From positions 2,046,001 to 2,110,000 of the forward strand of contig NZ_JACCCJ010000001.1 of NCBI RefSeq assembly GCF_013410105.1: a DNA stretch of 64,000 nt. The letters are read 5' to 3'. A program made the translations under genes and the position numbers. The DNA comes from Sphingopyxis sp. JAI108. Its GTDB lineage: Bacteria; Pseudomonadota; Alphaproteobacteria; Sphingomonadales; Sphingomonadaceae. Below are positions 33,424-36,456 of this stretch, piece by piece. The stretch's first letter is position 1. Every line of letters begins with the position of its first letter. The notes under the pieces are model-generated. The model saw only the letters and a program-made list of their open reading frames with translations. It made no database searches and was not told the origin of the DNA.

Positions 33424-33990
33424 ATGACCAATCCTCATGCGCAAAGTGCCGCGCCCTGGCACGGAACCACCATCCTTTCCGCCCGTAGCGAAGACAAGGT
33501 CGTCATTATCGGCGACGGCCAGGTGTCGATGGGCCAGACCGTAATGAAACCCAACGCCCGCAAGGTGCGGCGCCTCCACGACGGCAGCGTCATCGGCGGC
33601 TTTGCCGGCGCGACTGCCGACGCCTTCACCCTCTTCGAGCGCCTCGAAGCCAAGCTCGAGCGCCACAACGGCCAGTTGCTGCGCGCGGCCGTCGAACTCG
33701 CCAAGGACTGGCGCACGGACAAGTATCTGCGCAACCTCGAGGCGATGATGATCGTCGCCGACAAGGAGGTCACGCTCGTCATCACGGGCAACGGCGACGT
33801 GCTCGAACCGCTGGGCGGCATTGCGGCGATCGGCTCGGGGGGCAATTTCGCGCTCTCGGCGGCGCGCGCGCTCGCCGATTATGAAAAGGACCCTGCGGTG
33901 CTGACGAAGAAGGCGATGGAGGTCGCCGCCGACATCTGCGTCTACACCAATGACCAGTTCACGGCCGAGACCATCGACATCAAGGGCTGA
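33424..33990 (+). CDS. hslV: HslV, proteolytic subunit of the HslUV (ClpYQ) protease
   Basis: A 188-aa Ntn-hydrolase. The catalytic Thr is T15 of HGTTILSAR, so a propeptide of about 14 residues must be removed. [13 protein letters not shown] and [18 protein letters not shown] are family signatures. The start codon ATG is 55 nt after manA. HslV forms a dodecamer activated by HslU. In most proteobacteria hslU follows directly; here a 1.1-kb oxidase gene is in between. Confidence 0.95.
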
Positions 33991-34007
33991 TCCTCTATGG
34001 TCGCGGG

Positions 34008-35093
34008 GTGATTCAACCGCTCCCCCGCCGCCATTTCGTCGCCGCCTCCGCCGCCCTCGCCCTCCCCGGCTGCGCGACCACGACCGCGCGAACCCCTGCC
34101 ACCTGCCTGATGCCGGTGAAGGCGTCACCCGACCGCGTCATCCGCACCGTCGCGGGCCTCCGCCCCTATCGCCCGGGCGGCTTCGTCGTGCGCGCCGACA
34201 CGCTCGGCACCAAGCGCCTCGTCCACAACTACGGCCACGGCGGGTCGGGCATCACGATGAGCTGGGGCACGTCGAAGCTCGCGATCGAGATGGGCGCCCC
34301 CGGGCACAGCGGCCCCGTCGCGGTGATCGGCGCCGGCATCGTCGGCCTGTCCACCGCACGGCTGCTTCAGGAAGCGGGCTTCCCGGTCACCGTTTATGCC
34401 AAGGCGCTGCCGCCCGACACCACCTCGAACATCGCAGGCGGACAATTCCACCCCTTCGGCCTGTTCAAGGCCGATGCCGTCACCCCCGAATGGCGGCGAC
34501 AATTCTCCGCGGCGCTCGATTACAGCTGGCGGCGTTTCCAGATCATGGTCGGCGACGATTATGGCGTTCGCTGGCTCACGACCTATTCCGAAGGCACTCC
34601 CGAGGAGCCCAAGCTTCCGACCTTCCCGCCCGCAACGCGCGCGCTTCGCCGGGACGAGCATCCCTTCCCGATCGAGCGGCTCTGGCAATATGACACGATC
34701 TATGTCGAAACGGGTCGCTATCTCCGCCAGATGATGCGCGATATCGAGGGCGCGGGCGGCCGCATCGCGGTACGCGGCTTCGCTTCGCCCGCCGAGATCG
34801 CGTCGCTGCCCGAAACGCTCGTCTTCAACTGCACCGGGCTCGGCGCGCGCGACCTGTTCGGCGACACCGAATTGATCCCGATCCGCGGCCAGCTCGCCAT
34901 CCTGATCCCCCAACCCGAAGTCCAATACGCCTTCACCGGCGACGCCGGATATATGTTCCCGCGCCCCGACGGGATCGTCATCGGCGGCAGCTACGAACGC
35001 AATATTTGGGAGGCCGAGCCCCAGCCCGAGCGCATCGCGCGCATCGTCGCCGCGCATCAGCGGCTTTTCTCCGGATTCCGCTGTCCCGCTTGA
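34008..35093 (+). CDS. Circularly permuted D-amino-acid-oxidase-like FAD protein
   Basis: Starts at a GTG 17 nt after hslV (361 aa). The N-terminus looks exported: RRHFVAASAALALPGC combines a possible Tat motif with a lipobox at Cys22. Residues 50-88 carry GLRPYRP and VHNYGHGGSGITMSWG, which in normal D-amino-acid oxidases form the C-terminal end. The FAD dinucleotide motif VIGAGIVGLSTARLL only appears at residues 106-120, followed by ALPPDTTSNIAGGQFHPFG. The protein ends after RGQLAILIPQPE and GGSYERN, without a second copy of the RPxRP/HNYGHGG block. Thus the order of segments is permuted while all expected parts are present. Substrate unknown; exported location inferred. Confidence 0.8.
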   Translation: MIQPLPRRHFVAASAALALPGCATTTARTPATCLMPVKASPDRVIRTVAGLRPYRPGGFVVRADTLGTKRLVHNYGHGGSGITMSWGTSKLAIEMGAPGHSGPVAVIGAGIVGLSTARLLQEAGFPVTVYAKALPPDTTSNIAGGQFHPFGLFKADAVTPEWRRQFSAALDYSWRRFQIMVGDDYGVRWLTTYSEGTPEEPKLPTFPPATRALRRDEHPFPIERLWQYDTIYVETGRYLRQMMRDIEGAGGRIAVRGFASPAEIASLPETLVFNCTGLGARDLFGDTELIPIRGQLAILIPQPEVQYAFTGDAGYMFPRPDGIVIGGSYERNIWEAEPQPERIARIVAAHQRLFSGFRCPA

Positions 35094-35154
35094 CTTGAAC
35101 CGACCCCTTCCCATCTAGCGGTCACATGAATTTCTTTCTGGAACTCTCCACAAA

Positions 35155-36456
35155 ATGAACAAAGACCTGACCCCGAAGGCGATCGTCGCCGCGCTCGACA
35201 CGCATATCATCGGCCAGACCGCGGCGAAGCGTGCGGTCGCCGTCGCGCTCCGCAACCGCTGGCGCCGCCAGCAGCTTTCGCCCGACCTGCGCGACGAGGT
35301 CAGCCCCAAGAATATCCTGATGATCGGCCCCACCGGCTGCGGCAAGACGGAGATTTCGCGCCGCCTCGCCAAGCTCGCCGACGCGCCTTTCATCAAGGTG
35401 GAGGCGACCAAGTTCACCGAGGTCGGCTATGTCGGCCGCGACGTCGAACAGATCGCGCGCGACCTTGTCGAGGAAGCGGTGCGGCTCGAGAAGGATCGCC
35501 GCCGCGAAGCCGTGCGCGCCGCCGCCGAGGAGGCCGCGATGGAGCGGCTGCTCGACGCACTCACCGGCAAGGGCGCCAGCGAGGCGACGCGCCAGAGTTT
35601 CCGCCAGCGCATCCGTGAGGGTCACCTCGACGAGAGCGAGGTCGAGATCGAGGTTGCCGACACCCCGAGCATGAACTTCGAGCTTCCCGGCCAGCCGGGG
35701 CAGATGAGCATGATCAACCTGTCGGACATGCTCGGCAAGGCGATGGGCGGCCCGCCCAAGAAGCGCCGCAAGCTGAAAGTCATCGAGGCCGCGACGCGGC
35801 TGATCGAGGAAGAGCAGGACAAGCGGCTCGACCAGGACGATGTCGCGCGCGTCGCGCTCGCCGATGCCGAGGCGAACGGCATCGTCTTCCTCGACGAGAT
35901 CGACAAGATCGCGGTCAGCGACGTGCGCGGCGGCTCGGTGAGCCGCGAGGGCGTCCAGCGCGACCTGTTGCCGCTGATCGAGGGCACGACGGTCGCGACC
36001 AAATATGGTCCGATGAAGACCGACCATATCCTTTTCATCGCGTCGGGCGCATTCCATGTCGCGAAGCCGAGCGACCTGCTCCCCGAACTTCAGGGCCGCC
36101 TCCCCATCCGCGTCGAGCTCGGCGCGCTCTCCGAAGAGGATTTTGTCCGTATTCTCAGTGAGACTAAGGCCGGACTTCCCGAACAATATGCAGCGTTGCT
36201 CGGCACCGAAGGCGTGACGCTGAACTTCTCCGACGACGCCATCGCACGCGTCGCGAAACTCGCGGCCGAAGTGAATGAAAAGGTAGAGAATATCGGCGCG
36301 CGCCGGCTCCAGACGATCATGGAGCGGCTGGTCGAGGAAATCAGCTTCACCGCCGAAGACGCGGGCGGCACGACGCTCGACATCGACGCCGCATATGTCG
36401 ATAGCCAGCTCGCCGACGTCGTCGGCGACACCGACCTAAGCAAATATGTACTTTAG
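35155..36456 (+). CDS. hslU: HslU, ATPase subunit of the HslUV protease
   Basis: A 433-aa AAA+ unfoldase. Walker A is GPTGCGKTE near residue 57-65 and Walker B is IVFLDEIDK near residue 243. The intermediate I-domain lies between (residues about 110-230). The C-terminus DTDLSKYVL matches the conserved tail that docks between HslV subunits. Expression with hslV presumably still occurs by read-through across the permuted oxidase gene, since gaps are 17 and 61 nt and all run on the same strand. Confidence 0.96.

What the first reader, a model, noticed from the sequence alone, without database searches (positions are those of the whole stretch)
34008..35093. Circularly permuted D-amino-acid oxidase homologue lodged between hslV and hslU
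Seen: the segment with GLRPYRP and VHNYGHGGSGITMSWG is at residues 50-88, before the FAD-binding GAGIVG (108-113), and the protein ends soon after the GGSYERN region. Known: in pig or yeast D-amino-acid oxidase, GxRPxRP (with the substrate-carboxylate Arg283 in pig) and HNYGHGG are C-terminal. Joining the end of this protein (IVAAHQRLFSGFRC) to residue 33 onward restores the canonical order. Inference: a natural circular permutant, probably exported as a Tat-type lipoprotein, which is unusual for an FAD oxidase. It also splits hslVU, which is normally contiguous.
Basis: partly seen in the sequence, partly recalled or inferred. Interest (0 to 1): 0.8.

Follow-up and report, generated by a model that had tools for sequence, protein, structure and literature searches.

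The report
Circularly permuted, exported D-amino-acid oxidase relative
A bacterial relative of the enzyme that oxidises D-amino acids has its beginning and end swapped round in the chain, carries an export and lipid-anchor signal, and may have its two new ends held together by a disulfide bond; it looks like a natural rearrangement that arose once and is now found in many bacteria.

Summary
The finding is real. [quoted passage not shown] Restoring the canonical order in silico turns two phmmer matches to human D-aspartate oxidase into one. It is no assembly accident: the other 46 rows of the alignment show the same order, and a wider permuted family reaches other Alphaproteobacteria and Nonomuraea. 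Canonical and permuted forms lie on two sides of one branch (100/99). The N-terminus has a twin-arginine and lipobox signal. New here: in the window's subfamily (69 of 69 distinct sequences) a Cys before the displaced block and a Cys at the extreme C-terminus are always both present; none of 36 other permuted sequences has both. I infer a disulfide stapling the new termini. In a related clade an exported cytochrome c gene follows, suggesting a periplasmic dehydrogenase. The hslV-hslU position is patchy within the genus (14 filled, 60 empty). Substrate, electron acceptor and the disulfide are unproven.

The parts
34008..35093 (+). circularly permuted DAO-superfamily flavoenzyme, 361 aa, GTG start (start codon inferred)
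34008..34073 (+). predicted twin-arginine signal with lipobox LPGC; residues 1-22, lipidated Cys = C22 (34071-34073)
   Evidence: sequence RRHFVAASAALALPGC; RR plus lipobox found by script in 44 of 47 A1 rows; by eye L002 has it, L029 has RR with the unusual LQSC, L049 is cut; TatC present in the genome. Export and cleavage inferred
34104..34106 (+). C33, N-terminal partner of the proposed disulfide (CLMPV motif)
   Evidence: a Cys here, in some rows a few residues earlier (CTPLPPV type), in the 46 A1 rows that reach this far
34134..34298 (+). displaced block, residues 43-97 (strand-strand-strand-helix), C-terminal in canonical DAAO/DASPO
   Evidence: (matches 6rkf 280-330), secondary structure
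34161..34163 (+). R52, equivalent of the substrate-carboxylate Arg (R. emersonii Arg308; pig Arg283 as the finding says)
   Evidence: Arg in 53 of 53 aligned sequences
34224..34244 (+). HNYGHGG, residues 73-79; G79 is the equivalent of R. emersonii Gly335
34329..34346 (+). GAGIVG FAD-binding motif, residues 108-113
34950..34952 (+). Y315, equivalent of the substrate-carboxylate Tyr (R. emersonii Tyr244)
   Evidence: invariant in A1
35082..35084 (+). C359, C-terminal partner of the proposed disulfide
   Evidence: invariant column in the 47 rows of A1
33424..33990 (+). hslV, upstream neighbour
35155..36456 (+). hslU, downstream neighbour

Best explanation
The gene encodes a natural circular permutant of the D-amino-acid/D-aspartate oxidase fold. 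Shown by sequence: the strand-strand-strand-helix block that ends a canonical enzyme (with the substrate Arg and HNYGHGG) has moved to the front; the old C-terminal helix now runs by a short linker into the first strand of the FAD domain; the new ends lie where a canonical enzyme has a short loop. Inferred: the protein folds with FAD in the cytoplasm, leaves through Tat, is lipidated at C22 and sits outside the cytoplasm on a lipid tether; C33 and C359 form a disulfide that closes the gap left by the permutation; it oxidises a D-amino acid (or a similar small amino or imino acid) bound by R52 and Y315, passing electrons to O2 or to a periplasmic acceptor. The place between hslV and hslU is taken as a shared transcription slot, not as a sign of work with the protease.
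For: Order. Fold. One branch, 100/99, between 5 canonical and 48 permuted rows in a tree of blocks put into one order. Active site: R52, Y315 and G79 align with the residues that bind substrate in R. emersonii DAAO; Y315 is Tyr in 21 of 21 subfamily-A tree rows (residue roles from passages of PMC6697736). The bacterial DAAO signatures GxRPxR and YGHGGxG (passage of PMC9844085) are both present. Export: RR plus lipobox, TatC in the genome. Disulfide: 69 of 69 subfamily-A sequences have both Cys, 0 of 36 other permuted sequences have both. The window has four Cys, the commonest total in A1 (25 of 47 rows): C22, C33, C275 in the conserved FNCTG, C359. The VIA-align range for pig 1kif ends at model 355 / chain 268, and R52 as the carboxylate Arg (pig number recalled) puts residue 44 near pig 275, so the two tails start from points about six residues apart in the canonical chain.
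Against: No coordinates were available, so the Cys-Cys distance and the placing of residues 43-97 were not measured. The Cys pair marks one clade, so its perfect co-occurrence may be a single event. Other permuted relatives with export signals lack the pair, so a staple is not required. The positions of D-aspartate oxidase Arg216 and Arg237 are Thr and Tyr here, so D-aspartate is not specifically supported. Subfamily B lacks the Y315 equivalent. Oxidase against dehydrogenase cannot be told from sequence.
Confidence: 0.75

Rival explanations
1. Assembly error or frameshift fusion of two gene fragments.
For: None found; it is the first suspicion for any permuted order.
Against: The other 46 A1 rows have the same order; at least two loci (L035, L038) lie on records titled complete chromosomes. 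More distant genes match the permuted profile from front to back.
Confidence: 0.01
2. The permuted enzyme is a periplasmic dehydrogenase that hands electrons to the respiratory chain rather than an O2-using oxidase.
For: In a subclade of subfamily B a signal-bearing CxxCH protein follows the permuted gene: L123, L124, L125, and in Kozakia baliensis an annotated cytochrome c 5 bp downstream. Pfam finds cytochrome c in the L124, L125 and L164 proteins. L124, L125 and L164 group 100/100 in the tree.
Against: Only 3 of the 40 loci examined show such a gene; the four subfamily-A loci among them (L118-L121) do not, and the A1 loci were not scanned for it. The L123 piece sent to Pfam (70 residues) stayed under the cut-off (20.7 against 27 bits), and L123 is not in the tree. 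Subfamily B lacks the Y315 equivalent, so its chemistry may differ.
Confidence: 0.4
3. A degenerate or regulatory flavoprotein without amino-acid oxidase activity, for instance a redox or ligand sensor.
For: I saw no activity reported for any permuted member in the paper searches.
Against: FAD motif, R52, Y315 and HNYGHGG are invariant or at least 90% conserved in A1.
Confidence: 0.15
4. The two Cys do other work (metal binding, thiol exchange) or are free.
For: The distance was not measured; both lie in tails.
Against: Kept together while neighbouring residues vary; the predicted site is oxidising; the tails start from anchors about six residues apart in canonical numbering.
Confidence: 0.3

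Closest known systems
D-aspartate oxidase, human (6rkf)
   Same: best PDB match by sequence and fold; 27% identity over the Foldseek alignment, VIA-align Z 22.2; same Arg and GHG motifs
   Different: linear order; Arg216 and Arg237 not kept here; peroxisomal in eukaryotes (recalled)
D-amino-acid oxidase (R. emersonii 7ct4, pig 1kif)
   Same: substrate Arg, Tyr and Gly positions
   Different: canonical order; no Tat lipoprotein signal (recalled)
Canonical-order bacterial DAO relatives (Nocardia L166, Streptomyces L165, L130 of genome G546)
   Same: the same two blocks
   Different: FAD motif first, Arg/GHG block last
Glycine oxidase ThiO (TIGR02352)
   Same: same superfamily, 62.9 bits
   Different: far under the curated cut-off 250.8; canonical order (recalled)
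Proteus L-amino-acid deaminase (5fjm, 5hxw)
   Same: membrane-associated bacterial amino-acid flavoenzyme (recalled); fold match Z 16.1 for 5fjm
   Different: canonical order (recalled)

Membership tests
Pfam DAO (PF01266) superfamily | profile match over the curated cut-off | tested here: met
   127.5 bits against 27.9
D-amino-acid / D-aspartate oxidase family | GxGxxG FAD motif | tested here: met
   GAGIVG 108-113; G108, G110, G113 invariant
D-amino-acid / D-aspartate oxidase family | substrate-binding Arg, Tyr and Gly | tested here: met
   R52, Y315, G79
D-amino-acid / D-aspartate oxidase family | bacterial signatures GxRPxR and YGHGGxG | tested here: met
   GLRPYR 50-55, YGHGGSG 75-81; signatures from a passage of PMC9844085
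D-amino-acid / D-aspartate oxidase family | linear order: FAD motif first, Arg/GHG block last | tested here: not met
   order swapped
D-aspartate oxidase | acid-recognising Arg216 and Arg237 | tested here: not met
   Thr and Tyr in the window; Arg216 role in a passage of PMC6697736
D-amino-acid oxidase (EC 1.4.3.3) | oxidation of D-amino acids with O2 | not testable with these tools
   needs an assay
Tat-exported lipoprotein | RR motif, weakly hydrophobic stretch, lipobox Cys | tested here: met
   script: 44 of 47 A1 rows; L002 and L029 read by eye, L049 cut; no signal-peptide predictor was run
Tat-exported lipoprotein | actual export and lipidation | not testable with these tools
   needs fractionation
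Glycine oxidase ThiO | curated NCBIfam cut-off | tested here: not met
   62.9 against 250.8 bits

The most novel reading that the evidence does not exclude
Probability: 0.5. Interest if true: 0.75.

Novelty: new variant of a known kind. Interest (0 to 1): 0.62.

Why it matters
Natural circular permutation of a large two-domain flavoenzyme is unusual (recalled), and I saw none described for the D-amino-acid oxidase fold in the open-licence papers searched (listings; passages). The annotated permuted genes that I saw on plasmid records are called only 'FAD-dependent oxidoreductase'. The family gives a natural test of what a permutation costs and how a protein makes it good, here by a proposed covalent staple. 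It also points to oxidation of D-amino acids outside the cytoplasm, where peptidoglycan turnover releases D-alanine and D-glutamate (recalled).

Tried and rejected
Rejected: assembly artefact (homologues). Rejected: permutation caused by export, since D-type relatives (Rhizobium L161, Nonomuraea L163, L111) are permuted and show no signal by eye (the Nonomuraea start is my own reading). Rejected: D-aspartate oxidase as the specific assignment. Rejected as universal: the cytochrome c link (3 of 40 loci) and any constant neighbour (loci L115-L154).

Led nowhere: papers on permuted DAO, on Tat-exported DAO and on hslVU in Sphingopyxis; one search showed 20 of 28 papers. PMC9611098 has only a passing mention of glycine/D-amino acid oxidase (passage). 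PMC9844085, PMC4699246 and PMC6697736 (passages) do not hold the word stem 'permut'. The structure alignments cover about residues 98-357 only, so residues 43-97 were not placed on an oxidase. The search with a canonical protein matched in 6 of 299 genomes, each time a permuted gene already known. Rows dropped from the Cys table: six without a readable motif (L049, L080, L112, L123, L143, L144) and three rows of canonical order (L099, L101, L130); identical cores were counted once; the plasmid loci L161-L166 were not in it. Three of the 36 non-A rows have one Cys of the pair (L094, L096, L111); many rows were read from stop to stop, so stray upstream residues can count. Dropped from the gap count: 6 of 80 genomes without both genes on one contig, and one stray second hslV.

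Full report
What is there. The frame 34008-35093 on the + strand is intact, begins with GTG and encodes 361 residues. It sits between hslV, 33424-33990, and hslU, 35155-36456. The best Pfam DAO stretch is residues 104-356. phmmer against PDB sequences gives human D-aspartate oxidase (6rkf) as best hit, in two stretches in swapped order. When I moved the front block to the back, the same search gave one stretch, 3-321 on chain 14-330, 107.4 bits against 102.2 for the two-piece match. The gain in bits is modest; the merging of two stretches into one is the point.

Fold. AlphaFold2 with 47 rows gave pLDDT 88.1 and pTM 0.86; residues 1-30 are below 50. Foldseek ranks D-aspartate and D-amino-acid oxidases first (best E 5.5e-16, TM by query 0.61). 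VIA-align gives Z 22.2, 2.2 A over 248 residues for model 100-356 on 6rkf_B 2-264. The reported alignments span about residues 98-357, so the displaced block was not superposed; its three strands and helix (E44-54, E60-66, E69-75, H81-96) are modelled with block means of 90-98. No coordinates were given out.

Relatives. One scan of bacterial genome contigs gave 41 loci, titled Sphingomonas, Sphingopyxis, Sphingosinicella, Novosphingobium and related bins; one bin is labelled Verrucomicrobiaceae but carries the same match as a Sphingomonadales bin (L033, L034). With A1 as profile, 51 of 296 genomes of the order (E 1e-10), 16 of 385 of the class and 20 of 398 of the phylum samples (E 1e-8) match. 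The samples overlap, and one of the 16, G546, has canonical order. One match, G876, lies outside the class. Plasmid records add Rhizobium, Kozakia and Nonomuraea with the permuted order; in Mesorhizobium the gene is annotated as two pieces; Nocardia and Streptomyces have canonical order.

One origin suffices. I put the two blocks of 53 sequences in one order and built a tree. The five canonical sequences are one side of a branch with support 100/99. Subfamilies A (with the window, 21 rows), B (19) and C (2) are each one group with starred support, though the ungrouped row L114 lies inside B; D (4 rows) has 96/33. L100 and two canonical rows have long branches, and two long canonical rows meet. 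In the permuted rows the distance from HNYGHG to the FAD motif is 33-41 residues, so the break points are alike. Other members of the superfamily have canonical order (recalled), so the permuted order is taken as derived. The tree is unrooted and does not itself prove one event.

Active site. R52, Y315 and G79 align with Arg308, Tyr244 and Gly335 of the R. emersonii enzyme, which bind the substrate's carboxylate and amino groups (passages of PMC6697736). Arg is present in all 53 tree rows. The Tyr is absent from all 19 B rows and from L114. Gly is present in all but human DASPO. The Arg216 and Arg237 positions of D-aspartate oxidase are Thr and Tyr in the window (one search had these one residue off). 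I therefore expect a neutral D-amino acid or a similar substrate, by inference only.

Export. The N-terminus reads RRHFVAASAALALPGC. A script found RR plus lipobox in 44 of 47 A1 rows; of the other three, L002 has it by eye, L029 has RR with LQSC, and L049 is cut at a contig start. TatC is in the genome. No signal-peptide predictor was run. Permuted relatives in Rhizobium and Nonomuraea begin without a signal by eye, so export does not define the permuted family.

The cysteine pair. Of 105 distinct sequences that the script could read, 69 have a Cys between lipobox (or, in L029, the last 30 residues) and displaced block and a Cys in the last 14 residues. These 69 are the subfamily-A sequences: A1 rows and genes with profile scores of 378 bits or more; the other permuted genes score 323 or less. 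No subfamily-A sequence read has only one. Of the other 36, none has both and three have one. In A1 the C-terminal Cys is invariant. The VIA-align range for pig 1kif ends at model 355 / chain 268, and residue 44 falls near pig 275 by way of the Arg; so the tails that carry C359 and C33 start from points a short loop apart. I propose a disulfide that closes the ring opened by the permutation. This rests on conservation and on numbering, not on a measured distance, and the pair marks one clade.

Electron acceptor. In L123, L124 and L125 an exported CxxCH protein follows the permuted gene (3 of 40 loci examined, one of the 40 of canonical order). In Kozakia baliensis the annotated next gene, 5 bp on, is cytochrome c, and the genes before are a beta-lactamase-fold hydrolase and a prolyl-oligopeptidase-like protein. 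L124, L125 and the Kozakia gene group 100/100 in the tree; L123 is not in it. In Rhizobium and Mesorhizobium the next gene is a thiamine-pyrophosphate enzyme (Pfam for the Rhizobium one), which would fit decarboxylation of a keto acid. No cytochrome c was seen beside the four subfamily-A loci; the A1 loci were not scanned for it.

The hslV-hslU slot. Of 80 genomes of the window's genus, 14 have the gene. In all 14 the hslV-hslU gap is 1167-1220 bp; in the 60 others with both genes on one contig it is 8-66 bp; six genomes lack one or both and were dropped. On a tree of hslV plus hslU from 44 loci (17 with the gene, of them 3 from outside the genus; 27 of the 60 without) the label needs 8 changes, 7 forced by well-supported branches, so the gene came or went several times at the same junction. 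Two alleles at this place are 62-65% identical to the window's while HslV and HslU are 93-95% identical (L006, L035). Exchange by recombination across the conserved flanks is my inference. Over the 47 A1 loci hslU lies within 200 bp downstream in 38; seven show neither gene in the stretch held; in L029 and L036 only hslV is seen and the contig ends soon after.

Verdict. It is a natural circular permutant, a new variant of a known enzyme kind, with a proposed new stabilising device.

Noticed in passing
L023:2150-2497: A truncated second copy of the front part of the permuted gene (signal, Cys motif, GLRPYR, HNHGHGG) stands about 0.8 kb upstream of the full copy, in a genome bin where neither hslV nor hslU is seen nearby.
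   Followed up: partly
L123, L124, L125; L164:3890-5550: The permuted flavoenzyme gene is directly followed by an exported cytochrome c gene with one CxxCH.
   Followed up: partly
L161:3929-6708, L162:3926-6788: Signal-less permuted genes on rhizobial plasmids are followed by a thiamine-pyrophosphate enzyme; in Mesorhizobium the flavoenzyme is annotated as two pieces.
   Followed up: partly
window 33991-35154 and 73 other genomes of the genus: The hslV-hslU junction is a presence/absence site, filled in 14 and empty in 60 genomes, with at least seven changes forced on the hslVU tree.
   Followed up: yes
L006, L035: Flavoenzyme alleles 62-65% identical to the window's lie between HslV and HslU that are 93-95% identical, which suggests exchange of the gene at the slot.
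   Followed up: partly
L038, L041, L043, L054, L056: In Sphingomonas and Novosphingobium 0.5-2 kb, with varying open frames, stand between hslV and the permuted gene.
   Followed up: partly
L115, L122, L138, L140, L141, L142: A group of subfamily-B genes shares a conserved neighbourhood that includes, by eye, a cysteine-synthase-like protein.
   Followed up: no
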